64,000 nt of DNA from Catellatospora paridis. GTDB taxonomy: Bacteria; Actinomycetota; Actinomycetes; Mycobacteriales; Micromonosporaceae. The stretch lies in contig NZ_ML769317.1 of assembly GCF_009720365.1 (NCBI RefSeq), forward strand, positions 136,313-200,312. The letters run 5' to 3'. A model generated the notes under the pieces. The model was not told the origin of the DNA. It saw only the letters and a list, made by a program, of their open reading frames with translations, and ran no database searches. Shown here piece by piece: positions 1 through 26,241 of the stretch (position 1 is its first letter; each line of letters opens with the position of its first letter). The position numbers were made by a program, and so were the translations under genes.

Positions 1-212
1 GCCGCCCGGACCTGGCCGATCTCCCGGTTCAGTGCGAGATCCCAGGGCAGGGCCCGCTGCCCCGCCGGGAACCACTGCCGGCGTGTGTCGACGTGTTCGA
101 AGAGCACACCGCGCCGGTCGAAGGCGTCGAACAGTCGCTTCTCATCTGCGCCGACCCTGCTGGCGAGCACCGCAATCCTGCCCTCGCCTGGCCGCTGTGG
201 TGTCGCTGACAC
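1..212 (-). CDS. lysX: LysX-type ATP-grasp ligase, N-terminal part (runs off left edge)
   Basis: Reading leftwards from a GTG at 212, the first 70 residues match the start of LysX/RimK-like enzymes: IAVLASRVGADEK, then FEHVDTRR and LNREIGQVRA. LysX uses ATP to join the alpha-amino group of glutamate or aminoadipate to the C-terminal glutamate of the carrier LysW. A GGAG lies five bases before the GTG. The gene is cut by the window edge, so the ATP-grasp core is not visible. The presence of LysW, LysZ and LysY further right supports the call. It is divergent from the sulfotransferase at 464, and the 250 bp between them should hold both promoters. Confidence 0.82.
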   Translation of the reverse strand, partial: MSATPQRPGEGRIAVLASRVGADEKRLFDAFDRRGVLFEHVDTRRQWFPAGQRALPWDLALNREIGQVRA

Positions 213-463
213 GCGAACTCCGTTCTATAGCCACTGTCTGACCGGCGGCATCACCGCTGTCATGCGTAGGAGGCGAAACTACGACGTCCCGACCGGCCTG
301 TGCGTCCTCGGCAAATTCATTTAGACGGACGCATCGCGCTTACTTCTCGCCGATGCGGTCACCAGTTCTGATTACCCCGAGTCGGCGACCGCCGTGCCAC
401 CCTGGACGGGATTCGAATGGCTTCCGCAATGGTTCTCCTCACGCCGAGGAGAAGGAGGAGATC

Positions 464-1195
464 GTGGGAAACTCGCAGGAGCAGATACCGGTGCTCGCGC
501 TATGGAGCGCGCCTCGTTCGCGGTCCACCGCATTCGCGCGGATGATGGCCGAACGAGGCGACCGCACCGTCGTGCACGAGCCGTTCTCCCTGGTCGTCGA
601 CTTCGGAGAGGTGAAGGTCGGCGACCGGGTCGCGCACACCGAGCAGGACGTGCTCGCGGCACTGCGCGCCACCGCGGCGGAAAAGCCGGTGTTCTTCAAG
701 GACACCACGGACTTCCACTACCCGGCTCTGCTCGCCGACGAGGGCTTCCTCGCGGCCGCGACACACACGTTCATCATCCGGCACCCGGCCGAGGCCATCG
801 CCTCGCACCACAAGCTCAACCCGAACCTGGGCCGTGACGAGATCGGCTTCGCCTGGCTGTACGAGATATTCGCGGCCGTGCAGGCCGCCACCGGCACCAC
901 GCCTGTCGTGGTCGACTCCGACGACCTGCTCGACCGGCCGGCCGAAACCGTGCGCGCGTACTGCTCGGCGGTGGGCATCCCGTTCCTTCCGGATGCGCTG
1001 AGCTGGGAGCCGGGCATGCGGCCGGAATGGCAGGGGACCAGCAGATGGCATGCGTCCACCAGCCAGACCGCCGGCTTCAGGCGCAACACCGGTGACGGAG
1101 CCGCAGCGGTGGCCGCAGACCCGGTGCTGCGGGCCTATCTCGACTACCACCTGCCCTATTACGAGAAGCTGCGCGCCGCCGCGATCCGGCCGTGA
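464..1195 (+). CDS. sulfotransferase-like protein
   Basis: 243 residues. The N-terminal motif LWSAPRSRSTAF looks like the 5'-phosphosulfate loop of PAPS-dependent sulfotransferases, and FIIRHPAEAIASH resembles the 3'-phosphate-binding R...S segment of this fold. The start is GTG 464 because GGAGGAG sits just upstream; a longer frame from 353 has no ribosome binding site. It would transfer sulfate from PAPS to a hydroxyl of a small substrate. It lies directly before two overlapping genes of unusual type and a LysW set. In azinomycin/vazabitide-type pathways a hydroxyl is sulfated to make a leaving group for aziridine closure, and this is the likely role here (inference). Confidence 0.75.
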   Translation: MGNSQEQIPVLALWSAPRSRSTAFARMMAERGDRTVVHEPFSLVVDFGEVKVGDRVAHTEQDVLAALRATAAEKPVFFKDTTDFHYPALLADEGFLAAATHTFIIRHPAEAIASHHKLNPNLGRDEIGFAWLYEIFAAVQAATGTTPVVVDSDDLLDRPAETVRAYCSAVGIPFLPDALSWEPGMRPEWQGTSRWHASTSQTAGFRRNTGDGAAAVAADPVLRAYLDYHLPYYEKLRAAAIRP

Positions 1196-1312
1196 GCCGC
1201 CGGACATTCTGTCGGCGATATGGGTGGCCAATTTAAACATGGCGCTGACGAAAAGAAGTTTTCGCCGGGCTAAGTTGAAAATGTAGGACGGATTACAGAA
1301 GAGGTGTTTCAC

Positions 1313-1906
1313 GTGACGGGCATTGCGATGTCCTCCGTCAAAGCAGGGCTGTGCGATCCGGTCGACATATCTGGCCATCGCAACAACACGGCCATCTCTG
1401 CGGCGACCGAGACCAAAGCAGGGGCGTTCAATGTATGGGGGAACTCGTTCGCGGCTGAATATCTGCCCGCGGGCGGGAGTCTCGTACACGTGGACGGTGT
1501 TCCCTTCGAGTTTCCCCCGGTCTGTGACGGGCCGGACAACATTCGCGCGGCCGGACAGTTCATCGGCGTCACGCCGGGCCGCTACGACTGGATCCACGTC
1601 CTGGCCGCGTCCGAGCGACGCTGCGAGGACACCATCGAGCTGAGCTTCGCCGACGGTTCGGTCGACGCCGAGCCGCTGCGGATCTCGGACTTCTGGGCGG
1701 CGCCGGCGTGGTTCGGCGAGGTCAAGGCGTTCGAGAGCCTGGTCATGCACTACCCGCACCACGTTCAGCGAGGCGTTCCCGCGATGATGTGGGCGCAGCG
1801 GGTGCCCGTCACCCGGCGTGCCGAGCTGACCGGCATCCTCATGCCCCGCAACGTCGCGTTGCACGTGTTCGCGGTCACCCTCCAGCGTCACGGACAGCTG
1901 GCATGA
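1313..1906 (+). CDS. unfamiliar protein, candidate AziU2/Vzb11-like partner subunit
   Basis: About 197 residues, no signal peptide or membrane segment. The centre reads like an all-beta sandwich: NVWGNSFAAEYLPAGG, HVDGVPFEFPP, then GRYDWIHVLAASERR and TIELSFADGS, a pattern seen in carbohydrate-binding-like domains. No catalytic motif is obvious. GTG 1313 is preferred (AGAGG eight bases upstream); GTG 1304 is possible. It overlaps the next gene by four bases (ATGA), which suggests equal production and a heterodimer. The sulfotransferase upstream and the LysW pathway downstream make it a candidate for the small subunit of a sulfate-eliminating, aziridine-forming pair (AziU3/U2, Vzb10/11). That is inferred from context, not from remembered sequence. 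Confidence 0.55.
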   Translation: MTGIAMSSVKAGLCDPVDISGHRNNTAISAATETKAGAFNVWGNSFAAEYLPAGGSLVHVDGVPFEFPPVCDGPDNIRAAGQFIGVTPGRYDWIHVLAASERRCEDTIELSFADGSVDAEPLRISDFWAAPAWFGEVKAFESLVMHYPHHVQRGVPAMMWAQRVPVTRRAELTGILMPRNVALHVFAVTLQRHGQLA

Positions 1907-2955
1907 CCGCCGGCGTGACGGCACGGACCTACATGATCGTGGGGGCGGAGCCCGAGTGGTGGTACCGCGACCTCGTCAGCTGCCTGCAGGCCACGTTCGG
2001 CACGGTGCTGGCACGGGCGGGCGTCGATCCGCTGTCCGTGCTCGGAGCCGGCTGGCGGTTCCTGCACCTGCCGGGCGATGTCAGGTCCGAAGAGTTCTAC
2101 TACCCGTGCCCTGCCGACGAGTCCGGACAGATCGACCTCGGCTCCGCCCTGGCGCCGCACCACCAGCTGCACTCGCGCTGGTGGCAGCCCGCCGACGAGA
2201 ACGACGTCTGGCGCGAGGTCCGCGAGACTCTGGCCGACAACCGGCTGGTCATCGCTGCCGTGGACAACTTCCACCTGCCGTTCCGGCCCGCGTACGGCGA
2301 TGTGCACGCCGCACATCTCGTCGTGGTCTACGGCCTGGACGAGACCCGCGGGGTGGTGTACGTCTCGGACGCGATGCCGCCCGCGTTCCGCGGAGCCGTC
2401 CCGATCGAGGAGTTCCTGCGCAGCTGGGGCTCGGCGAATCCGAGCGACGTCCAGGACGCGTTCTTCAGCGACTCGCAGATCGGCAGGCGCTGCCTCGACG
2501 TCCGCCTGGACGCCCCGCCCGCCCCGCTGACCCCCGAACTGCTCGGCAGCTACCTGCGCACCGACGTCGAGGCCTTCACCACGGCGACCTCCACCCGCAC
2601 CGGACTGGCCGGATTCGACGCGTTCGCCGCGGAGCTCGTGGAGCGCTGCCGGGCCGGCGACGCCGATGCACTACGCGAGCTGTACCCGTTCGGCTGGGGC
2701 ATGCAGGCGCAGGCCTCACTGCACGGTGAGCTGCTGCGCAGATGCGGCCGGCAGTGGAACGACCCGGCACTGGCCGGAGCCGGGCGGGCGGTGGAGGCCG
2801 TCGCGCACGCGTGGACCGGGCTGCGGTTCACCGGTGCCCACGGGCTCGAAGACCCCCGTGCCGCTGCAGCCGACATCGCGCACCACGCCACGGTGCTGCG
2901 CGGCAAGTACGCGCGCGCTGTCGACGCCGTCGGCACGACGGCAGCGCGCCTGTGA
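1903..2955 (+). CDS. BtrH_N-like protein, candidate AziU3/Vzb10-like partner subunit
   Basis: 350 residues. The N-terminal half resembles the BtrH N-terminal domain (papain-like fold; butirosin BtrH is an acyltransferase): a Cys27 in VSCLQATFG, then VDNFHLPFR, then VHAAHLVVVYGLDE with His135 and His138, and a VSDAMPP strand. The C-terminal half is helical and unassigned. The start overlaps the stop of the upstream gene (ATGA). Two readings are possible: an acyl or aminoacyl transferase using Cys27, or the large subunit of the aziridine-forming sulfate eliminase. The sulfotransferase two genes upstream and the overlapping small partner favour the second. The first rests on fold resemblance alone. 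Confidence 0.6.
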   Translation: MTAGVTARTYMIVGAEPEWWYRDLVSCLQATFGTVLARAGVDPLSVLGAGWRFLHLPGDVRSEEFYYPCPADESGQIDLGSALAPHHQLHSRWWQPADENDVWREVRETLADNRLVIAAVDNFHLPFRPAYGDVHAAHLVVVYGLDETRGVVYVSDAMPPAFRGAVPIEEFLRSWGSANPSDVQDAFFSDSQIGRRCLDVRLDAPPAPLTPELLGSYLRTDVEAFTTATSTRTGLAGFDAFAAELVERCRAGDADALRELYPFGWGMQAQASLHGELLRRCGRQWNDPALAGAGRAVEAVAHAWTGLRFTGAHGLEDPRAAAADIAHHATVLRGKYARAVDAVGTTAARL

Positions 2956-2997
2956 CCCTCGCCGTTCGACCACCGTGATCTTGTGAAAGGGAGACTG

Positions 2998-4290
2998 ATG
3001 AGCAAGCTGGCAGCATTCGGCGGTACGGCAGTCGTGCCGAGGGAGATGCGCCGTGTGGAGTGGCCGCGCGTCGAGGACGACGACCGCAAGGCCGTCATGG
3101 ACGCGCTCGACGGCGCGCTGGTGTCCGACACGGATGGGGTGAACCCCGTCGCCGTGCTGGAGAACAGCTGGGCTGATCATTTCGGCTTCGAACACTGCGT
3201 CGCGGTGTCCAACGGCACCGCGGCCCTGTCCCTGGCGCTGGCAGCCCTCGGCATCGGACCGGGCGACGAGGTGATCGTGCCCGCGCTCAGCTTCATCGCC
3301 ACCGGGCTCGCCCCGGTGCATCAGATGGCCGTACCCGTGTTCGCCGACATCGACCCGGTCACCTTCAACATCGACCCCGACGACATCGAGCGCCGCATCA
3401 CCGACAAGACCGCGGCGATCATCCCCGTGCACCTGCACGGGGCCCCCGCCGACATGGACCGGATCACCGCGATCGCGGCCCGGCACGGCATCCCGGTCAT
3501 CGAGGACGCGGCACAGGCCCCCGGGGCGACCCACCGCGGCCGGCCGGTCGGCGGCATCGGCGCCGCGGGCGCGTTCAGCCTGCAGGTCAGCAAGAACATC
3601 CCGACCTGTGGCGAAGGCGGCCTGCTGGTGACCGGCGACGCGGAGCTCGCTAAGGCCATGCGCCGCGGCAGGCAGTTCGGCGAGGTCATCGAGAGCGGCC
3701 GCGACCGCGACTACATCTCCTACGGCCTGGGCTGGAACCACAAGATGAACGGCCTGCAGGCCGCATTCACCACCACGCAGCTCGCCCGGTTCGACGACTA
3801 CGAGCGCGCACGCCAACACAACGTCACCACGTTCCTCGCCCGGCTGGCGAAACTGCCCGGCCTGCAGGTGCCTACCGCGCTGCCGGATACCACCCATGTG
3901 TGGCACATCCTGCGCTTCCGGTTCGATCCCGCCGCGTTCGGCCTGGACGGGGTGCGCCCCGAAGCCCTGCGCTCGACCCTGCGACGGCTGCTGCGCGCCG
4001 AGGGCGTGCCGATGTCGCAGTACCAGCTCATGCCGCTGCCCGACCAGAAGGTGTTCGTCGACCGGCTCGGCTTCGGCTCGGGCTACCCCTGGTCGGTGAC
4101 CGGTGCGTCCGGAACGGTCGCCGGCGAGGACTATCCGGTGACCCGGGCGGTCATCGCCGACTCCCTGACCATCCAGAAGCGCCACCTGAACCCGGGGGCG
4201 GGCGAGCTGCTCAACCTGTACGCCGACGCCTTCGAAAAGGTGTGGGCCAACAGCGACATGGTCGCGACGCTGGCGAAGGCGGCGTCATGA
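2998..4290 (+). CDS. DegT/DnrJ/EryC1/StrS-family PLP aminotransferase
   Basis: 430 residues, normal for the family. Visible features are [22 protein letters not shown] (cofactor phosphate region), [11 protein letters not shown] (the Asp that contacts the pyridine nitrogen) and [16 protein letters not shown] with the Schiff-base lysine at about residue 199. ATG 2998 follows AAAGGGAG. Such enzymes aminate ketones on sugars, cyclitols or amino-acid chains using Glu or Gln. It overlaps the transketolase gene by four bases. In a LysW route with a transketolase, the ketose-like product needs amination at C6, and this enzyme or the class III aminotransferase at 25039 could do it. Confidence 0.88.
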
Positions 4291-5129
4291 CCATCACCCA
4301 GCTCCTGGAGCGCGACACGCTCAACGACGTCGCCGCCCGCATCCGCTCACACGTCGTCGACATGTGCGCAGGCCCCGAAGGCGGCCACCTGGGCGGTGCG
4401 CTGTCCTGCGTCGACGTGCTCACCGCACTGTACTTCTCGGTGCTCAACGTGGACACGCACTGGCCGGACGACCCGGACCGCGACCGCTTCCTGCTCAGCA
4501 AGGGCCATGCCGCAGTCGCCCTCTACGCGACACTGGCCGAGCGGGGCTTCTTCCCGGTCGACGAACTCGCCGGATTCGGGCGGGCCGGTAGCAGGCTGAT
4601 GGGCCATCCGGTGCGCGCGGTGCCCGGGGTGGAGCTGCCGACCGGGTCGCTCGGCCATGGTCTGGCACTGGGCTGCGGGTTCGCGCTGGCCAACCGTTAT
4701 GCCGGACGCGCCTCCCGCACTTTCGTGCTGCTGGGCGACGGCGAACTGCAGGAAGGCTCCGTGTGGGAGGCGGCCATCGCGGCCGCGTCGCAGCGCCTGG
4801 ACCGGCTGGTCGCCGTGGTGGACCGCAACGGACTGCAGCTGACCGGCCCCACCGATGCCATCGCGCCGATGGAACCGCTGGCCGAGCGCTGGCGCAGCTT
4901 CGGCTGGGCGGTGCGCGAGGTCGACGGGCACGACCCGGAGCTGCTGGCCGACCTGCTCGACGCCGCTCCGTGGGAGCCGGGCAAGCCCAGCGTGCTGATC
5001 GCCCGTACGGTCAAGGGCCAAGGGCTGCCCTTCCTGGCCGGCCGCGCTTCCAGCCACTATGTGACGCTGTCGCCGCGCAACCACGCGCGGGCGATCAGCG
5101 CCTTGCGGGACGCGGAGTCCCTCAGATGA
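4287..5129 (+). CDS. transketolase, N-terminal (TPP-binding) subunit
   Basis: 280 residues, the size of split transketolase alpha subunits. The thiamine diphosphate motif is [17 protein letters not shown] followed by [23 protein letters not shown] and PTGSLGHGL supply other conserved cofactor and substrate histidines. It overlaps its neighbours on both sides by ATGA, so both subunits should be made together. Split transketolases work as alpha2beta2. In the vazabitide-type LysW pathway a two-subunit transketolase adds a two-carbon hydroxyacetyl unit to the LysW-bound glutamate semialdehyde, and the position directly before lysW fits that role rather than pentose phosphate metabolism. Confidence 0.92.
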
Positions 5130-6094
5130 GCCGCGCGACCCGGGAGGCGTACCGCGACAGCGTGCTCGTACTGCTGGGACGGCACCCCGAGCTGATGTGC
5201 CTGGACTCCGACACCGGCCTGTTCAGCGCCGATCACGCGGCAGCGGCCGGTGACCAGTACCTCAACCTCGGCATCGCCGAGCAGAACCTGATGGGCGTGG
5301 CCGCCGGGATGGCGGCGTGCGGGCGGGTCCCGTTCGTCAACACGATGGCCGCGTTCGCCGCGTCCCGGGCACTGGAAGCGATCAAGATCGACATCGCCTA
5401 CAACCGGCTCCCGGTCCGCATCATGGCCACCCACGGCGGCCTGGCCGCGGGCCACCTCGGTCCGACACACCAGGCACTGGAAGACCTCGCCGTCATGCGG
5501 GTACTGCCCGGGATGACCGTCGTGGTGCCCGCCGACGCCGCCGCCACGGAGGCGATCGTCGAGCAGAGCGTGACCCTGCCCGGACCGCTCTACGTCCGGC
5601 TCGGCCGCAAACCGACCCCGCCGATTCCCGCGGCCCCGCCACCGGTCATCGGAAAGGCGCAGACGCTGCGAACCGGCGGCGACGTGGTGCTCGTGGGCTG
5701 CGGCCCCTACCCGGTGCTCGCCTGCGTCGCCGCGGCGCAAGTCCTCGCCGAACAGGGCATCGAGGCGACCGTGCTGAACATGCACACGCTGCGACCGTTC
5801 GACGCCGAGACGCTCATCGCCGCAGCACGCCCGGCCACACTCGTGGTCACCATCGAAGAACACTGGCGCGCCGGCGGCCTCGGCGGCGCGGTCGCCGAAG
5901 CACTCGCGGAGGCGGCCCCCACCCGGGTGCTGCGGCTGGGCGTACCCGACAAATTCGTCGACGAGGTGGGCAACCAGGAACACCTCGTCGCGCATTACGA
6001 CCTCACCGCCGAACGGGTCGTGAGGGCGGTCCGCACCGCCCTCGACACGACGGCCCGATCCGGCAAGACCGATTGGAAGGAACACCACTCATGA
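5126..6094 (+). CDS. transketolase, C-terminal (pyrimidine-binding) subunit
   Basis: 322 residues, partner of the preceding subunit. It shows the Pyr-domain segment YLNLGIAEQNLMGVAAG, whose Glu activates the thiamine ring, plus MATHGGLAAGHLGPTHQ and the C-terminal regulatory-domain stretch VTIEEHWRAGGLGGAVAEAL. The start ATG overlaps the upstream stop. Its stop in turn overlaps lysW's ATG. This tight DegT-TK-TK-lysW chain indicates one transcript and one pathway. Confidence 0.92.
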   Translation: MSRATREAYRDSVLVLLGRHPELMCLDSDTGLFSADHAAAAGDQYLNLGIAEQNLMGVAAGMAACGRVPFVNTMAAFAASRALEAIKIDIAYNRLPVRIMATHGGLAAGHLGPTHQALEDLAVMRVLPGMTVVVPADAAATEAIVEQSVTLPGPLYVRLGRKPTPPIPAAPPPVIGKAQTLRTGGDVVLVGCGPYPVLACVAAAQVLAEQGIEATVLNMHTLRPFDAETLIAAARPATLVVTIEEHWRAGGLGGAVAEALAEAAPTRVLRLGVPDKFVDEVGNQEHLVAHYDLTAERVVRAVRTALDTTARSGKTDWKEHHS

Positions 6095-6270
6095 CAACGA
6101 TGACCGTGCAGGCCTGCCCCGAGTGCGAGGGGCCGGTGAACGTCGCCGATTCGGTGCGGCTCAGCGAGATTCTGGAATGCGGGGACTGCCGCAGCGAACT
6201 GGAGATCGTGGCGCTCAACCCCACGGTCCTCGCCCTCGCACCGGAGATCGAGGAGGACTGGGGCGAGTAA
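6091..6270 (+). CDS. lysW: LysW amino-group carrier protein
   Basis: 59 residues, acidic. A zinc-ribbon pair, CPECEG near the N-terminus and CGDCRS in the middle, is followed by the hallmark C-terminus EIEEDWGE, whose last glutamate is the attachment point. LysW holds the amino group of glutamate or aminoadipate through an isopeptide bond so that the side chain can be phosphorylated, reduced and changed without cyclising. GGAAGGA lies about nine bases before ATG 6091; a second ATG at 6100 is also possible. Most actinomycetes make lysine by the diaminopimelate route, so a LysW here points to secondary metabolism, as in the vazabitide pathway. Confidence 0.95.
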   Translation: MTTMTVQACPECEGPVNVADSVRLSEILECGDCRSELEIVALNPTVLALAPEIEEDWGE

Positions 6271-11295: not shown

Positions 11296-11330
11296 GCGCA
11301 GCTTCCCTTGAACGGCAAGGGAAGCTGCGC
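11296..11330. terminator. 14-bp perfect hairpin
   Basis: Arms 11296-11309 and 11317-11330 pair perfectly over 14 bp with a seven-base loop. The right arm touches the stop codon of the leftward enoyl-CoA hydratase gene, and the structure also sits 3' of the rightward phosphotransferase, so it is a likely bidirectional terminator. Confidence 0.7.
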
Positions 11331-14142: not shown

Positions 14143-14397
14143 TTACGAGACCGGAGTCGCGACCAGATCGCGGACGTGACGCTGCAGGTCGGCGACGGTG
14201 GCGAAACTGCCGACGGACTCCTCGTCGATGTTGATGTCGAGCTTGTTCTCCACGTGCATCACCAGATCGATCATCGACAGGGAGTCGATTCCCAGATCGG
14301 ACCTGAGGTGCTGCTCGCCGGAGATCTGGAAGGACTCCGGCAGCTCGGCGACCTCCTTGAGGATTCCGTCAATCGTCTGGTCGATAACGTCGGACAT
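14143..14397 (-). CDS. acyl carrier protein
   Basis: 84 residues, acidic, four-helix ACP pattern. LGIDSLSMIDLV contains the phosphopantetheine Ser39. ATG 14397 follows GAAGGAGAAG. It heads the leftward ACP, KS-like, KS, enoyl-CoA hydratase operon, which looks like a dedicated short-chain acyl supply for the cluster. Confidence 0.92.
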   Translation of the reverse strand: MSDVIDQTIDGILKEVAELPESFQISGEQHLRSDLGIDSLSMIDLVMHVENKLDINIDEESVGSFATVADLQRHVRDLVATPVS

Positions 14398-17243: not shown

Positions 17244-17246
17244 CCG

Positions 17247-18505: not shown

Positions 18506-19402
18506 TCACACGCGGATCTCTTCTCGGCGTGTGCTGTGGTGCGGCGACTCTGCGCCGCAGATGTGAACCGTGGTGCCGGCCCCCGCGAGGGCACGCCTGA
18601 CGGGTTCGGAGGTGCGCCCGTCCGCGATGCGCACGGTGGCGACTCCGCCGTCGAGCGCTTCGCGTGCGGCGATGAGTTTGAGCGCCATGCCGCCGGTGGC
18701 GGACGGGTCAGGTGCGCCGGTGGGGGCGATCTGCACGGCGGCCTGCACGCTGGTGGGGTCGTCGGGATCGGCGAGCACGCCCGGTGCGCCGGTGAGCAGG
18801 AGCAGCTGGTCGGCACCGAGTGCCGCGGCCAGCGCCGCCGCGGCCCGGTCGGCGTCGACGTTCACGGGCTGGCCGTGCTCGTCGACGGCCGGCGGCGAGA
18901 TCACCGGCACGTAGCCGGCGCGCAGCAGCGTCGCGGGCAGTTCGGTGTCGACCTGGGCGATCCGGCCGCTGTGGTTGTCGCGGATCAATACGGTGCGACC
19001 GTCGACGACGGCGCGGACGGCGGACTTGCGACGGGCGCGGAGCATGCCGCCGTCCATGCCGGTCAGGCCGACCGCGCGCACCTGATGGCGGGACAGCTCC
19101 GCCACCAGCTTCGGCTTGACCGCGCCCGCCAAGGCGAGCACGACCACTTCGAGGGTTTCCGGGTCGGTGTGACGTGTGGAGACGCTGTCCGGCGCGACGA
19201 GAGTGCGCTGCGGGACGCCGAGCCTGCCGGCGAGGCGGGCGATCTCGCCGGACCCGCCATGGACGAGAAGGATCGAATGACCTTCGTGGACGAGGCGGGC
19301 GATGTCGGCGCAGATGTCGGCGGCGTTCACGGCGGGATTGCCGCCGCACTTGACGACGATGAGCGGTTTGGTGGTCACGGTCTCTCCGGTCGGCGGGGTC
19401 AT
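18506..19402 (-). CDS. lysZ: LysZ-type kinase (LysW-bound glutamate/aminoadipate kinase)
   Basis: About 298 residues of the amino-acid-kinase fold (ArgB relatives). IVVKCGGNPAVN is the phosphate-binding glycine loop and LLVHGGSGEIARLAGRLG the substrate loop. LTGMDGGMLRARRKSAVR, VNVDADRAAAALAAALGAD and ADGRTSEPVRRALAG closely follow LysZ rather than ArgB. It phosphorylates the side-chain carboxyl of the amino acid carried on LysW. ATG 19402 overlaps the lysY stop (ATGA), but GTG 19378 has a better ribosome binding site (GGAG). No argD, argF or argR is nearby, so an arginine role is unlikely. Confidence 0.9.
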   Translation of the reverse strand: MTPPTGETVTTKPLIVVKCGGNPAVNAADICADIARLVHEGHSILLVHGGSGEIARLAGRLGVPQRTLVAPDSVSTRHTDPETLEVVVLALAGAVKPKLVAELSRHQVRAVGLTGMDGGMLRARRKSAVRAVVDGRTVLIRDNHSGRIAQVDTELPATLLRAGYVPVISPPAVDEHGQPVNVDADRAAAALAAALGADQLLLLTGAPGVLADPDDPTSVQAAVQIAPTGAPDPSATGGMALKLIAAREALDGGVATVRIADGRTSEPVRRALAGAGTTVHICGAESPHHSTRREEIRV

Positions 19403-20430
19403 AGGGGGTGCAGGCCGGGGAACGTCAGGCCCAGGGTCTCCGGCAGGCCCATGCGGATGTTGAAGCACTGCAGGGCGTTGCCGGCACCACCTTTGACGAG
19501 GTTGTCCAGGGCTCCGATGACGGTCAGGCGACCGGTGTCCTCGTCGAGGGCGTAGCCGACGTCGCAGAAGTTCGACCCCAGCAGGATCTTCGGCTCGGGG
19601 TAGCGGAAGATGCCGCGCTGGTGCGCGACGACGCGCACGAACGGCTCCTGGGCGTACTGCTCACGGAAGGCCCGGCGCACAGTCCGTTCGTCCACCCCGG
19701 GACGCAGGGTCGCATGGCCGATGGTCTGGACTCCGCGGACCGCCTCGACCCCCGTGGCGGTCATCGCGGCCGCCAGGCCCAGGTGCCGGGAGATCTCCGC
19801 CTCGTGCCGGTGACGGGTCGGCGCGAACACGCGCATGGCGCCACTGCGTTCGGCGTGCAGGTTGGCCGGGCCGGCGGTGGCACCCGAGCCGCTGGAACCG
19901 GTCCGGGCGTCGAACTGGGCCCCCTGCTCCAGATCGATCAGATCGTGCGCCACCAGAGGGTAAAGGGCGAGCACGCCGGCCGTGGCCATGCACCCGGGAA
20001 CGCTGATCAGGTCCGCGGCACGCAGGCGCTCGCGGTACAGCTCGGGAAGGCCCGGCACGAAGTCGTCCAGCAGATGCGGGGCCAGATGCTCCTCGCCGTA
20101 GTAGCGCTGGAAGACCTCGGTGTCATCGAGCCGGAAGTCCCCGGTCATGTCGATGACGAGCTTGGACCGCTGGATCCAGTGGTCGATCTGGGTCATCGCC
20201 ACCCGGTGCGGCAGCGACAGGAACACCGCGTCGCACTCCGGAACCGCTTCGGCCGCACAGAACGCCAGATCGGTGACGGACCGCAGATTCGGATGCACAC
20301 CGTCGATCCGCTTGCCCGCGAAACGGGACGAGACCGCGCCTGCCACCTCGATCTCGGGATGTCCCAGCAGCAACCGCAGCAGCTCGCCGCCGATGTAACC
20401 GCCTGCGCCGACAACCGTCACCCGCAGCAT
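19399..20430 (-). CDS. lysY: LysY-type reductase (LysW-acyl-phosphate reductase)
   Basis: 343 residues, ArgC/LysY family. It starts with the NADP Rossmann motif VVGAGGYIGGELLRLL; the catalytic Cys is about residue 147 in SVPGCMATAG; TRHRHEAEI carries the base His; the end is DNLVKGGAGNALQCFNIRMG. It reduces the acyl phosphate made by LysZ to the semialdehyde. GGAAGG lies eight bases before ATG 20430, and the stop overlaps lysZ. The SPGC motif and length fit the LysY branch, and the lysW and lysX genes in the window support this over ArgC. Confidence 0.9.
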   Translation of the reverse strand: MLRVTVVGAGGYIGGELLRLLLGHPEIEVAGAVSSRFAGKRIDGVHPNLRSVTDLAFCAAEAVPECDAVFLSLPHRVAMTQIDHWIQRSKLVIDMTGDFRLDDTEVFQRYYGEEHLAPHLLDDFVPGLPELYRERLRAADLISVPGCMATAGVLALYPLVAHDLIDLEQGAQFDARTGSSGSGATAGPANLHAERSGAMRVFAPTRHRHEAEISRHLGLAAAMTATGVEAVRGVQTIGHATLRPGVDERTVRRAFREQYAQEPFVRVVAHQRGIFRYPEPKILLGSNFCDVGYALDEDTGRLTVIGALDNLVKGGAGNALQCFNIRMGLPETLGLTFPGLHPL

Positions 20431-20541
20431 GAGCACATCCTTCCCACAGACACACTGCGACACGTCATGTGATGCCCTCCAGTCCGAACCGATTGCCACA
20501 CGAAAGAAGCTCATAACCTTCAGAAAGTCCCGGTAGACCCA

Positions 20542-21729
20542 TTACGGGGTGACGCGGTAGTCCAATGTCTGCAGGACGTTCGCCGCGTGGGCGCGCAGTT
20601 CGGACACCGAATCGGCGGTGACCGAGAAGGAGAGGAAGAAGTTCTCCTTGTCGCTGGTCGCCTGCAAGCCGTTGAGCAGCTTTATGCCGATCACACCCGG
20701 CAGGGCGAGCAGTTCGTCTTCGGTGGTCCTGACCTCGACGGTGCCGTACTCGTCGGCTTCCACGTCCATCCAGCCGATCATCGGCTCCAGGCGCAGCGGC
20801 TCCGGTCGCTCCACGGTGAATTCGCCCAGTGCCATCGAGATGACGGCTGCGAACGGGTCCATCCCGGTGATCACCTGGACCGCCTTGGGTATCTGGCCGC
20901 CGCCGGGCCGCGGATTGATCTCGATGAGCTCCGTCCGGCCGTCCTCGGTGCTCCGGCCCTCGAAGTGCAGCCAGAGCTGGTCGAGGCGAAGGTCGGTGCA
21001 CAGCGTGCTGATCGTCTCGCACAGTTCGCGCACCCCTTCCCGCACATGGTCCTGCTGGGGCGGATGGAACTCCAGGCCCGCATCGTGGTGCTTGACGTCG
21101 TCGTGGTCGGGCTTCTCGACCGCGAGGACCGGGTGGAAACGGCCGTTGACCACCGGGCCGTCCACGGAGAACTCGGTGCCCGGCAGGTACTCCTCGATGA
21201 CCATCTCGATGTCAGCGGACCCACGATCGATCAGGTACTGCTGGTAGGCGAACAGCTCTGCCGGGTTGTCCGCGCGGCTGACCAGGTGCGAAGCCCCGGA
21301 CACCCGTGCCGGCTTGACGATGACGGGGAAGAAGTCCACCGCCGCCGGGTCGCTGCAGTACTTGATGCCGGACAGACCCAGGCTGCGCATGTGGTCCCGG
21401 ACCGACGTCTTGCTCGCCAGCACGGTGCGGCCGGCGTCGCCGCCCGGTAGGCCGTAATGCGCGGCTATCGCGATGTTCCAGGAAATCAACTTCTCGACCA
21501 TGTTCACGACGGCGATGGGCACGATGCCACGCTCGTCGAGCCGGCCGGCGAGGGTGGACAGCTCGTCGCTGTCCCAGTCGAAAAGGACATGGTCGTCGCA
21601 TAGCGCGGCGTTGGGATCATCCGGCGATTCGGAGACCAGCACCGGCCGCAGATTGCGGGCCCGAACCTCTTTGACGGCAGGGGCCACGTTGCCGATGGAT
21701 ATCCAGGAGAGGATGAGCACGGATTTCAT
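20542..21729 (-). CDS. ATP-grasp carboxylate-amine ligase
   Basis: 395 residues. Features are VLASKTSVRDHMRSLGL, FFPVIVKPARVSGASHLV (ATP-binding lysine), IEEYLPGTEFSVDG and the metal-binding end LIEINPRPGGGQIP, as in BacD/carnosine-synthase-like dipeptide ligases. GGAGG lies just before the ATG. It would activate a carboxylate as acyl phosphate and join it to an amine. It is upstream of lysY in the same direction, about 110 bp away. In a ficellomycin- or vazabitide-like product it could form the amide bond to a second amino acid; this is inference. Confidence 0.87.
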   Translation of the reverse strand: MKSVLILSWISIGNVAPAVKEVRARNLRPVLVSESPDDPNAALCDDHVLFDWDSDELSTLAGRLDERGIVPIAVVNMVEKLISWNIAIAAHYGLPGGDAGRTVLASKTSVRDHMRSLGLSGIKYCSDPAAVDFFPVIVKPARVSGASHLVSRADNPAELFAYQQYLIDRGSADIEMVIEEYLPGTEFSVDGPVVNGRFHPVLAVEKPDHDDVKHHDAGLEFHPPQQDHVREGVRELCETISTLCTDLRLDQLWLHFEGRSTEDGRTELIEINPRPGGGQIPKAVQVITGMDPFAAVISMALGEFTVERPEPLRLEPMIGWMDVEADEYGTVEVRTTEDELLALPGVIGIKLLNGLQATSDKENFFLSFSVTADSVSELRAHAANVLQTLDYRVTP

Positions 21730-22098: not shown

Positions 22099-23223
22099 GT
22101 GTCCGCAATCGAGCAACTGACCTTCGACCGACTGGCACCCGGGGTCGGAAGACAACTCCGGGAGCTCTGTCGTCTCGACAATTACCACGGCCCAAGGGCA
22201 GTGCTCTTCGAGTACGCACTCGTCTGCGCCTCAGTAGCGCTGTGTGTGGGAATCTCGTACTGGTTCTATCCAGTGGCCCTGATCGTCATCGGCTCCGTAC
22301 AACGCTTCCTCGCCCACTTCCTGCACGAGTCGTCGCACAAGGTGCTCGCCCGGAACAAGGCGCTGAACCTGCTCGCCGGGTCGGTGTTCTCGGGATACCT
22401 CATCTGGCACCTGCACGGCCCCTACCGCAGCTCGCACGTCGGCAACCACCATCGCAACCTGGGCGATGTCGAAGCCGATCCCGACTACAGATTCCACATC
22501 GAGTGCGGCCTCTACGACACCGAGCGCTCCGACCGCCATTTCTTCTACAAGGAGCTGGTGCTGTCCGCGCTCGGGTTGCGCACCCTCGACTACATCCGCT
22601 ACGTGATCAATGAGCGGGTCTTCACCGACAGCTCCAAGATCACCGTGTCGGTGCCGGTGCCGCTGCGGGTCGAGCGGGCGGTCCTACTCACCCAGTGGGC
22701 GGCCATCATCGCAGTGTGCGCCTGGTTCGGCTGGCTGCCACAGCTGCTGCTGTTCTGGTTCGTCCCGCTGTTCACCACGAACGTGGCCATCGGCTGGCTC
22801 GCCGAACTGTCCGAGCACTACCCGATGCCCGAAAGCGAGCACCGGCCGCTGCTGCTCACCCGCAACCGCCACGGCCGGTTCCTGGAGCAGTTCCTGATCA
22901 GCCGGCACAACGACCGGTACCACCTCGTCCACCACCTGAACACCGGCATCCCACACTGGAACCTGGGCCGAGCCCACCGCGTCCTGCTGCAGGACCCGCA
23001 GTACGCCGCCTGGGACGGCCTGTGGGCCGGCGCGTTCACCCGCCCCCGCTCCCGCAAGAACAAGGAAACCGTCATCAGCTACGCCGCCAAGTACCGCCAG
23101 TGGCGCAAGGCCGGCGGGGACCCGGCCGTATCAAGCCCGACTTTCGCCCAGCTCATGATGCTCGCAGCCGATACCTCGTCCCTGTCTCCGGCGGAGGTCC
23201 GTGAACCTGCGCATTCAGTGTGA
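22099..23223 (+). CDS. membrane di-iron desaturase/hydroxylase
   Basis: 374 residues. The three histidine boxes of the fatty-acid-desaturase superfamily are present: HESSHK, HVGNHH and YHLVHH, with hydrophobic segments before the first box and between the second and third. GTG 22099 has AAGG eight bases upstream. It would use O2 and two electrons to desaturate or hydroxylate a lipid or a small carrier-bound substrate at the membrane. In the cluster it could modify the acyl chain made by the KS/ACP module or hydroxylate an amino-acid moiety. Confidence 0.85.
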   Translation: MSAIEQLTFDRLAPGVGRQLRELCRLDNYHGPRAVLFEYALVCASVALCVGISYWFYPVALIVIGSVQRFLAHFLHESSHKVLARNKALNLLAGSVFSGYLIWHLHGPYRSSHVGNHHRNLGDVEADPDYRFHIECGLYDTERSDRHFFYKELVLSALGLRTLDYIRYVINERVFTDSSKITVSVPVPLRVERAVLLTQWAAIIAVCAWFGWLPQLLLFWFVPLFTTNVAIGWLAELSEHYPMPESEHRPLLLTRNRHGRFLEQFLISRHNDRYHLVHHLNTGIPHWNLGRAHRVLLQDPQYAAWDGLWAGAFTRPRSRKNKETVISYAAKYRQWRKAGGDPAVSSPTFAQLMMLAADTSSLSPAEVREPAHSV

Positions 23224-23398: not shown

Positions 23399-24121
23399 AT
23401 GGCAACGCGGCTTGTTCAGATCAACATGAAGGCAAGGGACGACTCCGCGCTCGGCGGTTTCTGGGCGCAGGCGCTCGGCTGGGCGGTCTCCAGCGAGGCA
23501 CCCGGCGTGACCAACCTCGAACCCGAGGGCTTCGTCTACCCCGACCCCGTTGCCGTCTGTCTCGACCTCGTCACCTCCCCGGAACCCAAGACGGTGAAGA
23601 ACCGGGTCCACCTCGACCTGGCCGCCACCTCCGCGGCCCACCAGGCGGAACTCGTCGCACGCCTGACGGAACTCGGCGCGACACCCGCCGACGTGGGCCA
23701 GGGCGACGTCCCGTGGACGGTCATGGCCGACCCGGAAGGCAACGAGTTCTGCGTGCTGGACTCCCTCTACCATGACACCGGACCGATCGCATCGGTCGTG
23801 GTCGACTGCGCGGATCCGCGCGCCATGGCCCGCTTCTGGAGCGAGGCCACGGACTGGACCCTGCACAAGGTGACCGACCACAACGCGGTCCTGCGCTCCG
23901 CCGCGGGCGTCGGTCCATATCTGCAGTTCCTGCGCGTACCCGACGTGAAAACCGGGTGGAACCGCGCCCACCTCGACATCCGCCCATACCCGGGTGACGA
24001 CCCAGAGGCCGAGGCGGCCAGACTTCAGGCTCTCGGTGCCACCGCCATCGACGTCGGCGTCCCGTGGACGGTCCTCGCCGACCCGGAAGGCAACGAGTTC
24101 TGCCTGCTCGCCCCAGCCTGA
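23399..24121 (+). CDS. VOC/glyoxalase-family protein, two modules
   Basis: 240 residues made of two VOC modules. Each ends in a near-identical stretch, VPWTVMADPEGNEFC and VPWTVLADPEGNEFC, about 115 residues apart. Earlier strands VHLDLAA and AHLDIRP match the metal-ligand positions of the fold. No specific activity can be named; such proteins include bleomycin-like drug-binding resistance proteins and isomerases. It lies inside the cluster between two hairpins and may be independent of it. Confidence 0.8.
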   Translation: MATRLVQINMKARDDSALGGFWAQALGWAVSSEAPGVTNLEPEGFVYPDPVAVCLDLVTSPEPKTVKNRVHLDLAATSAAHQAELVARLTELGATPADVGQGDVPWTVMADPEGNEFCVLDSLYHDTGPIASVVVDCADPRAMARFWSEATDWTLHKVTDHNAVLRSAAGVGPYLQFLRVPDVKTGWNRAHLDIRPYPGDDPEAEAARLQALGATAIDVGVPWTVLADPEGNEFCLLAPA

Positions 24122-24203: not shown

Positions 24204-24233
24204 AGGGCCGCAGGGGAGAATCCCCGCGGCCCT
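24204..24233. terminator. GC-rich hairpin between convergent genes
   Basis: Arms about 24204-24217 and 24221-24233 pair over 13 bp with one bulged base and a three-base loop, followed by a short T-containing tail. It lies between the VOC gene and the convergent SDR gene. Confidence 0.65.
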
Positions 24234-24254
24234 TCTCGGCGTATGCCCGCCGGC

Positions 24255-25013
24255 CTACGTCTGGACCGGAGGCCGCAGCCGCAGACCGTGCATGCCGTTG
24301 TCGACGGCGAGCACCGTGCCCACCGAAGCGCTCGACAAAGGGCTGGCCAGGTAGGCAATGGCACCAGCCACCTCGTCGGCGGTCACCAGCCGGCCGGTCG
24401 GCTGGAACGCGTCGAGCGCGGCCCGGGCGGCCACCGGATCTGCCGCCTGCGCGAGCGACCGGCCGATCCACGGGGTGTCCGCGGAACCCGGTGCTACGCA
24501 GTTGACCCGAATGCCCTCCCGGACGTGATCGGCGGCCATGGCCAGCGTCAGCGCGTACACCGCGCCCTTGCTGGCCGAGTACAGCGCCCGCTGCTGCACC
24601 CCGGCCCACGCCACGATCGAACAGGTGTTGACGATCGACGCGGCGGGGGAGCGCCGCAGGTGCGGTATCGCGTGCCGGGCGACCCGGACCATGCCGATCA
24701 CGTTGACGTCCAGCACGCGCAGCCACTCGTCGTCACCGTTGGCGGTGACGTCTCCGACGGCGCCGATCCCGGCGTTGTTCACCACGACGTCCAGCCTGCC
24801 GAAACGTTCGGCCACGGCGTCGACGGCGGCCTTGACCTGTACGTCGTCGGTGATGTCGGCCTGCACGCCGAAGATGCCGTCCGGCAGCCCCTCCGGTTTC
24901 AGATCGAGCGCGGCGACCTGGGCTCCCCTGCTGTGCAGCAGGTTCGCCGTGGCCAGGCCGATTCCCGACGCGCCGCCGGTGACGATGGCGGCCAATCCTG
25001 TGAAGTCACTCAA
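24255..25013 (-). CDS. short-chain dehydrogenase/reductase
   Basis: About 252 residues, classical SDR. IVTGGASGIGLATA is the cofactor glycine motif, VVNNAGIGA the structural NNAG, and the catalytic Ser-Tyr-Lys are in NTCSIVAW and ALYSASKGAV. ALDLKPEG suggests preference for NAD(H), since an acidic residue ends beta 2. The start is taken as TTG 25013. It lies 25 bp downstream of the aminotransferase gene in the same direction, so the two are probably co-transcribed and may interconvert an alcohol and ketone that is then aminated. Confidence 0.85.
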   Translation of the reverse strand: MSDFTGLAAIVTGGASGIGLATANLLHSRGAQVAALDLKPEGLPDGIFGVQADITDDVQVKAAVDAVAERFGRLDVVVNNAGIGAVGDVTANGDDEWLRVLDVNVIGMVRVARHAIPHLRRSPAASIVNTCSIVAWAGVQQRALYSASKGAVYALTLAMAADHVREGIRVNCVAPGSADTPWIGRSLAQAADPVAARAALDAFQPTGRLVTADEVAGAIAYLASPLSSASVGTVLAVDNGMHGLRLRPPVQT

Positions 25014-25038
25014 GAGATCTATCCCGTCCGCTCGATGG

Positions 25039-26241
25039 TCAAGACAGCACGTCGGCGATGATGCTGACGCCCAGGTCGATCTCCGCACGGGTGACGACCA
25101 GCGGCGGCGCCACCCGCAGATGCCCCCTGGCCTCCTTGCAGAGCAGGCCACGCTCGGCCAGCGCCTCAGTCACCCGGCGCCCGGCCACCCGCTCCTCGTC
25201 GAGCTGCACCCCGGCCCACAGGCCACGTCCCCGGACCTCGGTCACGCCGTCCAGCTCGTTGAGCCGGGAGTGCAGGTACGCCCCCAGCTCGCGGGAGCGC
25301 TCCTGGAACTCCCCGGTGGCCAGCAGCCGCACCGCCTCCCGGCCGACCGCACACGCCAGCGGGTTCCCGCCGAACGTCGAGCCGTGGTCGCCGGGCGTGA
25401 TCACGCCGAGGACGTCGGCACGGCCGACGACCGCGGACACCGGAACGAGCCCGCCACCCAGGCTCTTGCCCAGGGTGTACAGGTCTGCCTTGATGCCCTC
25501 GTGGTCCATCGCCAGGGTCGTGCCGGCGCGGGCCAGCCCGCATTGGACCTCGTCGGCGACGAGCAACGTGTTGGTGTCGTCGCACAGGTCACGGACCTCG
25601 GCCAGGTAGCCCTTCGGCGGAACGATGATGCCGGCCTCGCCCTGGATCGACTCCAGCAGGATCGCCGCGGTGTTGTCGGTGATCGCCGCGCGCAGCGCGT
25701 CGATGTCGCCGTACGGCACCACCTTGAAACCGGGCGTGAACGGACCGAAGCCGGCCCGGTGGCTGGCGTTCGTGGAGAACGAGACGATCGTCGTCGTACG
25801 CCCGTGGAAGTTCGCCCCGGCGACGATGACCTCGGCGGCGCCGTCCGGCACGCCCTTGACCCGGTAGGCCCACTTCCTGGCGATCTTCACGGCGGTGTCG
25901 ACGGCCTCGCCGCCGGAGTTGGACAGCAGCACCTTCTCGGTGCCCGTCAACTCGGCCAGCTCCTGGCAGAACGGCCCGAAGTGATCGTGGTGGAATGCCC
26001 GGGTGCTCAGCGTCAGCCGGTCGAGCTGTGCCTTCGCTGCGGCGACGAGGGCGGGGTGCCGGTGGCCGAAGTTGGTCGCGGAGTACCCGCCGTGGAAATC
26101 GAGATAACGTCGGCCCTCCGTGTCGTGTATCCAGGCGCCCTCACCGTGGCTGAGCACCACGGGGAACGGTACTGAGTCGTGCGCGGCCCAGCGCTCCGCG
26201 AGGGCCATGTGGTCCCGAGCGGACATGGTGTCCACGGTCAT
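25039..26241 (-). CDS. rocD: class III aminotransferase, ornithine aminotransferase-like
   Basis: 400 residues. It resembles ornithine-oxo-acid aminotransferases: TRAFHHDHFGPFCQEL, LLSNSGGEAVDTAVKIARKWA, LLVADEVQCGLARAG with the cofactor Asp, and TLGKSLGGG with the Schiff-base Lys. AAGGAG precedes ATG 26241 by eight bases. RocD works on the terminal amine of ornithine. A LysJ-like role, aminating the LysW-bound semialdehyde or extended ketone, is also possible given the lysWXYZ genes. With the DegT enzyme there are two candidate aminotransferases in the cluster. Confidence 0.85.
   Translation of the reverse strand: MTVDTMSARDHMALAERWAAHDSVPFPVVLSHGEGAWIHDTEGRRYLDFHGGYSATNFGHRHPALVAAAKAQLDRLTLSTRAFHHDHFGPFCQELAELTGTEKVLLSNSGGEAVDTAVKIARKWAYRVKGVPDGAAEVIVAGANFHGRTTTIVSFSTNASHRAGFGPFTPGFKVVPYGDIDALRAAITDNTAAILLESIQGEAGIIVPPKGYLAEVRDLCDDTNTLLVADEVQCGLARAGTTLAMDHEGIKADLYTLGKSLGGGLVPVSAVVGRADVLGVITPGDHGSTFGGNPLACAVGREAVRLLATGEFQERSRELGAYLHSRLNELDGVTEVRGRGLWAGVQLDEERVAGRRVTEALAERGLLCKEARGHLRVAPPLVVTRAEIDLGVSIIADVLS

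What the first reader, a model, noticed from the sequence alone, without database searches (positions are those of the whole stretch)
1..26241. Amino-group carrier (LysW) cluster that looks like an azabicycle/aziridine pathway
Seen: lysX, lysW, lysZ, lysY, split transketolase, two aminotransferases, sulfotransferase with an overlapping pair of unfamiliar genes, ATP-grasp ligase, exporter. Known: in Streptomyces the vazabitide pathway uses a LysW-type carrier, LysX, kinase, reductase, transketolase and aminotransferase to build a diamino-dihydroxy-heptanoate, and azinomycin and ficellomycin share the resulting azabicycle. Inferred: this cluster makes a related aziridine product, with a different acyl part supplied by the ACP/KS module and desaturase.
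Basis: partly seen in the sequence, partly recalled or inferred. Interest (0 to 1): 0.85.

Follow-up and report, generated by a model that had tools for sequence, protein, structure and literature searches.

The report
Ficellomycin-type aziridine cluster, new arms
This actinobacterium carries a gene cluster that very probably builds the same DNA-reactive aziridine 'warhead' as the antibiotic ficellomycin, but dresses it with a different set of side-chain genes, so its product is probably a new relative of a known drug-like family.

Summary
The 'unfamiliar overlapping pair' at 1304-2955 is AziU2/AziU3: phmmer hits the crystallised azinomycin proteins at E 1.5e-49 and 2.8e-75. A sulfotransferase precedes the pair; a DegT aminotransferase, split transketolase and LysW follow; LysZ and LysY lie downstream. 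Upstream of the window lie LysX, LysK, a C-A-T-TE NRPS and two acyl-CoA-dehydrogenase-like oxidases, so the expected set for a 1-azabicyclo[3.1.0]hexane is complete. LysZ groups away from ArgB. The window's AziU3 sits in a 21-row clade (100/100), apart from azinomycin. A close sister (G525) encodes the exact oxidase of PDB 8hk0 (382/382), recalled as ficellomycin's. The window shares 17 genes with it at 67-85%, lacks its amidinotransferase and L-amino-acid ligase, and adds an ACP/KS/KS-like/crotonase set, another ATP-grasp ligase, a 642-aa unknown protein, and a 'desaturase' nearest to arginine hydroxylase GntB. The NRPS condensation motif is lost in 20 of 21 close clusters scored. I file it as a new variant of a known kind: the warhead is near certain, the arms are inferred, the product is unknown.

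The parts
1..170 (-). 5' end of lysX (278 aa; rest upstream of the window), ATP-grasp ligase that loads the amino acid onto LysW
   Evidence: Pfam RimK 8.8e-29 on the upstream part; PDB Thermus LysX 6.7e-57
464..1195 (+). sulfotransferase: predicted to sulfate the C7 hydroxyl (role inferred)
   Evidence: Pfam Sulfotransfer_5 5.5e-18; homologue in 51 of 69 full-length named AziU3 loci
1304..1906 (+). AziU2 homologue, 200 aa (start 1304 chosen by homology)
   Evidence: PDB Azi28/AziU2 1.5e-49
1903..2955 (+). AziU3 homologue, 350 aa; aziridine-forming sulfate elimination with AziU2 (role recalled from the azinomycin proteins)
   Evidence: PDB Azi29 2.8e-75, AziU3 3.7e-75; Pfam BtrH_N 3.1e-27
2998..4290 (+). 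DegT-family aminotransferase, C6 amine of DADH (role inferred)
   Evidence: Pfam 4.8e-85
4287..5129 (+). transketolase N-terminal subunit
   Evidence: Pfam Transketolase_N 9.1e-45
5126..6094 (+). transketolase C-terminal subunit
   Evidence: Pfam Transket_pyr 1.1e-33, Transketolase_C 9.1e-25
6091..6270 (+). LysW-type amino-group carrier protein, C-terminus EDWGE
   Evidence: Pfam 1.4e-14; only LysW match in the genome; EDWGE in 63 of 65 loci with a hit, the other 2 partial
6474..8402 (+). 642-aa protein without family; invariant His237 and Cys297 and a CxC/CxxC cluster; possible caspase-like peptidase (guess)
   Evidence: no Pfam, NCBIfam or PDB hit; alignment of 6 sequences
9268..10050 (-). 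APH-fold kinase 1; membership uncertain (also in G002, not G271)
   Evidence: Pfam APH 3.1e-16
10234..11118 (+). APH-fold kinase 2; membership uncertain (not in G002 or G271)
   Evidence: Pfam APH 2e-33
11330..12109 (-). crotonase-family (ECH) enzyme of the acyl set
   Evidence: Pfam ECH_1 7.2e-31
12106..13296 (-). ketosynthase with TCAS, HGTG and GHLMGA motifs
   Evidence: Pfam 4e-28 and 4.9e-25; motifs; NCBIfam FabF 194.8 and AmcF 158.9 bits, both below cut-off
13289..14104 (-). KS-like partner, 271 aa, no Cys at the aligned site (CLF/CYF-like guess)
   Evidence: no Pfam/NCBIfam; weak distant hits, of which 3 of 3 tested carry a ketoacyl-synt domain
14143..14397 (-). acyl carrier protein
   Evidence: Pfam PP-binding 1.1e-8
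14755..15735 (+). alpha/beta hydrolase (LipP1/HSL type)
   Evidence: NCBIfam NF058653 352 bits, cut-off 350; also in G002, G271, G485, L203, L204
15942..17243 (+). MFS exporter
   Evidence: Pfam 2.1e-18
18506..19378 (-). LysZ, [LysW]-amino acid kinase
19399..20463 (-). LysY, ArgC-type reductase
20542..21729 (-). ATP-grasp ligase, predicted to make the amide bond in place of the NRPS
   Evidence: Pfam ATP-grasp_4 2.9e-11; 68-70% in S. omiyaensis and S. lateritius clusters
22201..23223 (+). membrane hydroxylase of the FA_desaturase superfamily, GntB-like
   Evidence: NCBIfam GntB 273.1 bits, cut-off 380; 79-83% in 3 sister genomes
23426..24121 (+). two-domain glyoxalase-like protein; membership uncertain
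   Evidence: Pfam Glyoxalase_6 2.6e-54
24255..25013 (-). SDR dehydrogenase, predicted to oxidise the C5 hydroxyl
   Evidence: Pfam 7.7e-53; 84% to G525
25039..26241 (-). class-III (ornithine-type) aminotransferase, called LysJ here, predicted to put the amine on C5
   Evidence: TIGR01885 441.8 bits, cut-off 378.4; 75% to G525

Best explanation
A ficellomycin-clade biosynthetic cluster (about -8.8 kb to 26.2 kb in window coordinates; a further regulator gene at about -11 kb). Carrier stage: LysX loads glutamate on LysW; LysZ, LysY, the split transketolase and the DegT aminotransferase turn it into LysW-bound diamino-dihydroxy-heptanoate (DADH). LysK frees it. Warhead stage: the sulfotransferase sulfates the C7 hydroxyl and AziU2/U3 expel sulfate to close the aziridine. 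The A domain of the C-A-T-TE NRPS loads it, the two acyl-CoA-dehydrogenase-like proteins make the alpha,beta double bond in trans, and the aziridine nitrogen adds to give 1-azabicyclo[3.1.0]hexane; the TE releases it. Decoration: SDR plus class-III aminotransferase turn the ring hydroxyl into an amine, as expected for ficellomycin. Here that amine is not made a guanidine (no amidinotransferase found in the cluster); it, or the alpha-amine, receives an acyl or aminoacyl group. Candidate donors are the ACP/KS/KS-like/crotonase set and an amino acid hydroxylated by the GntB-like enzyme and joined by the ATP-grasp ligase, because the NRPS condensation domain has lost its catalytic motif. Shown by sequence: the families, the clade, the conserved pocket, the lost His. 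Inferred: every reaction, and the arms above all.
For: AziU2/U3 homology. Oxidase 79% identical to PDB 8hk0_A, whose 382 printed residues equal G525's. AziU3 tree: 21-row clade at 100/100, azinomycin clade separate. LysZ tree, LysX, one LysW and a separate ArgB in the genome. A-domain pocket D-V-F-D-F-G-G-V identical in the 19 close-cluster C-A-T-TE NRPSs scored plus L089 and L098. Second His of HHxxxDG kept in 1 of 21 close clusters with this NRPS, against 37 of 40 other loci. APS kinase, CysD and CysN genes (PAPS supply) sit inside ten close clusters (family names tested on G525's copies only). G525 carries a StrB1-like amidinotransferase (3.4e-166), an L-amino-acid ligase (LAL_C2), LysJ and SDR, matching the recalled ficellomycin structure.
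Against: No chemistry was measured. The window has no PAPS operon of its own within the stretch read. KS-like and ACP relatives were found only in G002 and G271 among the loci compared. S. lateritius and S. omiyaensis share g39 (the 642-aa protein), ATP-grasp, GntB-like and SDR genes but show no LysJ in the stretch read. G341, the one close cluster with an intact condensation motif, also has an ATP-grasp ligase, and three loci outside the clade (L099, L100, L106) have lost the motif too, so loss and ligase do not track perfectly. The GntB-like protein is below that model's cut-off.
Confidence: 0.85

Rival explanations
1. The cluster makes the LysW-bound DADH and the aziridine, but its end product is a known compound (ficellomycin, vazabitide A or azinomycin).
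For: The core fits all three.
Against: AziU3 lies outside the azinomycin clade. The window lacks the amidinotransferase and LAL ligase of G525 and carries genes not seen in G525's 40 kb (KS set, GntB-like, g39). The vazabitide cluster itself could not be fetched, so that comparison is open.
Confidence: 0.07
2. The KS/KS-like/ACP/crotonase/hydrolase genes are an unrelated neighbouring operon and the product is simply the amino-azabicycle with one ATP-grasp-added residue.
For: Only 3 clusters have the set; S. lateritius and S. omiyaensis share most other accessory genes without it.
Against: In G271, from another genus, the set sits between the core and SDR/LysJ although the rest is rearranged. 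L203 carries a different ACP plus a KAS-III-like enzyme next to a 67% identical hydrolase, and L204 looks the same by gene order and sequence starts.
Confidence: 0.3
3. LysW, LysX, LysZ and LysY serve primary lysine or arginine synthesis.
For: They belong to the same protein families.
Against: Separate ArgB in the genome, LysZ tree, and close linkage with AziU2/U3 and transketolase in most relatives.
Confidence: 0.01

Closest known systems
Ficellomycin cluster (taken to be that of genome G525, via PDB 8hk0; the link is recalled)
   Same: LuxR, two oxidases, C-A-T-TE NRPS, LysK, LysX, sulfotransferase, AziU2, AziU3, DegT, split transketolase, LysW, LysY, LysZ, LysJ and SDR: 17 genes, 67-85% identical; oxidase-NRPS-LysK-LysX and sulfotransferase-to-LysW runs in the same order.
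   Different: Window lacks StrB1-like amidinotransferase, LAL_C2 ligase and the CysC/CysD/CysN operon; has KS/KS-like/ACP/crotonase, another ATP-grasp ligase, GntB-like hydroxylase, 642-aa protein and another MFS.
Azinomycin cluster (PDB 7wuw/7wux AziU2/U3, 8gs1 Azi28/Azi29)
   Same: AziU2/U3 pair; sulfotransferase, ACAD-type oxidases and LysX near the pair in loci of that clade.
   Different: AziU3 clade separate; ACAD1 of loci in that clade only 38-42% identical to the window's.
Vazabitide A cluster
   Same: Carrier-protein route to DADH (PMC9570651, passages); sulfation and aziridine by recall.
   Different: Not fetched; not tested.
Cispentacin type II PKS-like set (AmcB-H; PMC10698177, outline, abstract and passages)
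   Same: ACP + KS + KS-like partner that lacks motifs; an aminotransferase that uses ornithine.
   Different: KS 158.9 bits against AmcF cut-off 325, ACP 38.3 against AmcB cut-off 80; no AmcE match over cut-off in the genome; no free-standing AMP-ligase (AmcH role) among the cluster genes scanned.
GntB, guanitoxin L-arginine gamma-hydroxylase
   Same: Best curated model for 22201-23223, E 3.2e-81.
   Different: 273 bits, below the cut-off of 380; substrate unknown.

Membership tests
Azabicycle (AziU2/U3) aziridine pathway | AziU2 and AziU3 homologues as an adjacent pair | tested here: met
   4-base overlap
Azabicycle (AziU2/U3) aziridine pathway | sulfotransferase next to the pair | tested here: met
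   464-1195; homologue in 51 of 69 full-length loci
Azabicycle (AziU2/U3) aziridine pathway | pair of acyl-CoA-dehydrogenase-like oxidases next to an NRPS | tested here: met
   upstream of the window; 8hk0_A 1.3e-199
Azabicycle (AziU2/U3) aziridine pathway | enzymatic aziridine formation | not testable with these tools
   needs an assay
Amino-group carrier (LysW) pathway | LysW with EDWGE end, LysX, LysZ, LysY, LysK | tested here: met
   LysW is 49.5 bits against TIGR01206 cut-off 53.2 (just under) but over the Pfam cut-off
Primary lysine/arginine synthesis | LysZ groups with ArgB of primary metabolism | tested here: not met
   split 100/99
Ficellomycin clade | AziU3 in one clade with the ficellomycin cluster | tested here: inconclusive
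   G525's AziU3 is 85% identical but was not a row of the AziU3 tree, whose 21-row window clade holds rows 76-89% identical; the LysZ tree does hold G525, in the same 9-row clade as the window (100/98); that G525 is the ficellomycin cluster rests on recall
Ficellomycin itself | amidinotransferase for the guanidine | tested here: not met
   in G525 and G341 (same gene family); none among the window cluster genes scanned
Ficellomycin itself | LAL_C2 L-amino-acid ligase | tested here: not met
   present in G525; the window ligase shows no LAL_C2
Azinomycin | AziU3 in the azinomycin clade | tested here: not met
Vazabitide A | gene-by-gene match to vzb | not tested
Cispentacin-type KS/CYF | NCBIfam AmcF and AmcB cut-offs | tested here: not met
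   partner gene has no NCBIfam hit at E 1
GntB arginine hydroxylase | NCBIfam equivalog cut-off | tested here: not met
   273.1 of 380 bits

The most novel reading that the evidence does not exclude
The amino-azabicycle is a fixed, mobile DNA-reactive cassette with interchangeable arms, and this lineage has turned its NRPS from a peptide-bond maker into a bare loading platform for ring closure (condensation motif lost in 20 of 21 close clusters scored), leaving arm attachment to swappable ATP-grasp ligases. The window joins two arm modules found separately elsewhere (g39 / ATP-grasp / GntB-like / SDR as in S. lateritius; KS / KS-like / ACP / crotonase / LysJ as in the Micromonosporaceae genome G271), giving a product with a polyketide-type acyl group and a hydroxylated, perhaps arginine-derived, residue on the warhead.
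Probability: 0.4. Interest if true: 0.68.

Novelty: new variant of a known kind. Interest (0 to 1): 0.52.

Why it matters
Few aziridine antibiotics have known enzymes. This places a complete azabicycle pathway in a Micromonosporaceae genome, shows that it is one of 28 close clusters in the collections searched (AziU3 76% identical or more) in Streptomyces, Micromonospora, Herbidospora and kin, and gives a testable split between a constant warhead and variable arms. It also yields a clean prediction: the NRPS of this group cannot condense, so the ATP-grasp enzymes must. If right, arm genes could be used to forecast which clusters make new compounds.

Tried and rejected
Cispentacin/coronafacic-type arm: considered because the KS and ACP hit AmcF/AmcB models, dropped as a membership claim because scores are far under cut-off, AmcE is absent and no AmcH-type ligase was seen. 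Profile comparison of KS with the KS-like protein was uninformative (probability 0.5%, three-row profiles).

AlkZ-type self-resistance in the cluster: the genome has 8 AlkZ-like matches (7 full-length, 1 weak), none on contig C6, although PMC9040887 (passage) counts 5 AlkZ-like genes in ficellomycin/vazabitide-like clusters.

Fatty-acid desaturase reading of 22201-23223: replaced by GntB-like hydroxylase (the L111 relative gives 315 of 380 bits). Recurrence: window, G002 and, S. lateritius, S. omiyaensis and S. bohaiensis at 79-83% and L111, L078, L088 at 39-41%. One search covered the genomes of 20 clade loci: 8 matched, two of them weak (4.4e-4, 8.7e-4) and dropped, 12 had none. The S. bohaiensis match is on another contig than its AziU3.

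Structure prediction of the 642-aa protein (A2), the KS-like protein (A3) and the oxidase was never accepted: 'machine busy' on every try. No fold claim is made.

First LysZ tree used an out-of-frame ArgB translation and is discarded; one search replaces it with a reduced set (20 of the 56 cluster LysZ rows that one search used, plus window, own ArgB and three PDB chains).

Gene calling failed on G137 (one search shows only tiny ORFs), so G137 is not counted for accessory genes. Residue 331 of the A-domain pocket was misread by the local aligner (C); ungapped reading gives T, so only eight positions are cited.

The set of 21 is not the 21-row clade. Of 28 distinct close clusters (AziU3 76% or more; 12 by whole-genome search, 16 more by the named scan), 21 have this NRPS in the fetched stretch and were scored, 4 (G199, G283, G140, L081) have other NRPSs, and 3 (L070, L082, L085) show none in the stretch. 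G002, G271, G525 and G485 are in the 21 by AziU3 identity, not by the tree.

Limits: 80 of 95 relatives were kept; flanks there are 10 kb at most, so absences in named loci are soft. The ACP of the L078 cluster was seen only in L203 and is not matched to the window's ACP there, so an ACP absence means little. tblastn hits at E 1e-5 to NRPS, KS, SDR and MFS families are unspecific.

Full report
What is there. The window is G000:C6:136313-200312 of an 8.97-Mb, 99.8% complete genome. Its family is Micromonosporaceae, judged from named Micromonospora loci that share contigs (same lengths) with members of the search's family f1; the genus is not named. The cluster does not begin at base 1. lysX starts at 170 and runs out of the window, followed on the same strand by lysK (M20 peptidase), a 1366-aa C-A-T-TE NRPS and two acyl-CoA-dehydrogenase-like genes; a LuxR regulator stands beyond, and a second HTH gene that is conserved in G002 and G271 lies at about -11 kb. 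After 26241 comes a 2.5-kb gap and short ORFs that read like transposase pieces (my reading, no call).

The deciding genes. The 1903-2955 protein matches PDB 'Azi29' at 2.8e-75 and 'AziU3' at 3.7e-75. The 1304-1906 protein matches 'Azi28' and 'AziU2' at 1.5e-49 and 1.8e-49. PMC9570651 (passages) says that DADH is sulfated and the sulfate displaced by the neighbouring amine to give the aziridine, citing Kurosawa et al. 2022. That AziU2/U3 do this is recalled; that paper is not held. PMC11880133 (passages) speaks of sulfotransfer-mediated aziridine synthesis in the azabicyclo[3.1.0]hexane ring in ficellomycin biosynthesis; [quoted passage not shown] The content of that paper is recalled, and it is not held. 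It is the model for my oxidase step.

Distribution. AziU3 is found in 2 of 11 genomes of the genus, the own one included, 28 of 354 of the family (24 strong, 4 with E from 6.9e-9 to 5.2e-4) and 14 of 394 drawn from the class (6 strong, 8 with E from 1.4e-5 to 6.6e-4). A named scan gave 95 relatives, of which 80 were kept. AziU2 accompanies 79 of 80, always on the same strand. Of the 69 loci of 20 kb or more, 51 show a sulfotransferase hit, 58 LysX, 48 LysW, 55 DegT, 50 transketolase, 60 an NRPS hit and 47 an ACAD1 hit.

The clade. In an ML tree of 82 AziU3 rows, the window falls in a 21-row clade (100/100) of Streptomyces, Micromonospora, a Micromonosporaceae MAG and Herbidospora. The PDB azinomycin protein sits in another 8-row clade (100/100). 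Host taxa are mixed inside the window's clade, which suggests transfer. The NRPS pocket residues 235-330 read DVFDFGGV in all 19 close-cluster C-A-T-TE NRPSs scored, and in L089 and L098 outside. Four close clusters (G199, G283, G140, L081) carry other NRPSs with an intact condensation motif; no ATP-grasp ligase other than LysX was recognised there by similarity, though several of their genes were not identified.

The ficellomycin link. PDB 8hk0_A matches the window oxidase at 1.3e-199, and its printed 382 residues are identical to the oxidase of G525; the window's is 79% identical. I recall 8hk0 as the ficellomycin oxidase of Streptomyces ficellus; the tool output names only the enzyme class. 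G525's cluster also has a StrB1-like amidinotransferase (3.4e-166), an LAL_C2 ligase, an MFS and APS kinase/CysD/CysN, plus LysJ and SDR. That fits recalled ficellomycin (valine joined to a guanidino-azabicycle). The window shares 17 genes with it at 67-85% identity.

The window's own arms. Two gene sets differ from G525. Set A (642-aa protein, ATP-grasp, GntB-like hydroxylase, SDR; the SDR is in G525 too) recurs in S. lateritius and S. omiyaensis at 73-74%, 68-70%, 82-83% and 86-90%, there with APS kinase/CysD/CysN. Set B (crotonase, KS, KS-like, ACP, hydrolase, with SDR and LysJ) recurs as a whole only in G002 and in G271. The KS-like protein has no close relative in 393 other class genomes (7 weak hits, best 1.9e-5) or in 351 other family genomes (11 weak hits, best 4.5e-8); three weak hits were tested and all three carry a ketoacyl-synt domain. 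L203 holds a parallel arrangement: another ACP and a KAS-III-like enzyme beside a 67% identical hydrolase; L204 looks the same, its hydrolase 66%.

A lost condensation motif. The second His of HHxxxDG, recalled as the catalytic one, survives in 1 of 21 close clusters (G341/L071); the window reads VPSLVCDT and G525 AHRLVCDG. Outside, it is kept in 37 of 40 loci and lost in L099, L100 and L106, so it was probably lost more than once. An ATP-grasp ligase besides LysX is present in the window, G002, G271, G341, G525, G186 and, cut at the edge, G485 (Pfam on three representatives). The simplest reading is that this NRPS only loads and releases the warhead.

Primary metabolism excluded for LysZ: own ArgB is at C26, and LysZ and ArgB split at 100/99. 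The Thermus LysZ branch is long and the tool warns of long-branch joining. LysZ's PDB ranking agrees (Thermus LysZ 1.2e-53, best acetylglutamate kinase 2e-29).

The 642-aa protein. Four homologues lie in azabicycle clusters (G002; L074, L080, L087 at 70-74%). In 393 other class genomes two more full-length ones were found (46-48%, G652 and G707) and two broken or weak ones (G701, G724). In G652 and G707 it stands beside a DegT-like enzyme, an ATP-grasp ligase and an MFS (36-44% to the window's) and, in G652, a cytosylglucuronate decarboxylase BlsE (633 bits, cut-off 400), recalled as the mark of blasticidin-type nucleosides; G707's counterpart is 68% identical to it. His237, Cys297 and four Cys at 495-524 are invariant in six sequences. 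A link with export or unmasking of a reactive product is a guess.

Print status. Ten full-text searches listed no paper whose title or shown abstract treats this cluster, or condensation-motif loss or ATP-grasp ligation in azabicycle clusters; I saw listings, and most journals in this field are not held.

Noticed in passing
window 6474-8402; L190:8682-10541 (G652); L191:8951-10837 (G707): A 642-aa family without Pfam domain occurs both in aziridine clusters and in what look like blasticidin-type nucleoside clusters (BlsE hit in G652); in the window, G652 and G707 it has an ATP-grasp ligase and an MFS nearby; invariant His/Cys suggest a caspase-like dyad (guess).
   Followed up: partly
L067 (G525), L074, L076, L078, L080, L082, L083, L085, L087, L088; outside the clade L091: APS kinase, CysD and CysN genes travel inside sister azabicycle clusters, perhaps a private PAPS supply for the sulfotransferase; none was seen in the window cluster.
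   Followed up: partly
L068/L069 (G485), L070, L079: One branch carries other genes around the same warhead genes; in G485 Pfam finds a methylaspartate-mutase-like MutE with a B12-binding protein, an HMGL/IPMS enzyme, a desaturase, a PLP decarboxylase and a phosphopantetheinyl transferase: another arm type.
   Followed up: no
L106, L123, L126, L131, L134, L137, L143, L146, L148, L099, L100: AziU2/U3 with NRPS hits and mostly ACAD hits but no LysW or transketolase within the flanks read; either the cluster is split or the substrate is made differently.
   Followed up: no
window 17317-18204: 295-aa protein without family with an RxxxxH-like motif; reads like a HEPN protein; not seen in G002, which has a ClpC-N-like gene there (my reading).
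   Followed up: no
window 28697-33707: Short ORFs on both strands that look like remnants of an ISL3-type transposase, at the downstream edge of the cluster (my reading, no call).
   Followed up: no
window 33868-36006: 712-aa protein that reads like a CHAT-type domain followed by RCC1-like repeats (my reading, no call).
   Followed up: no
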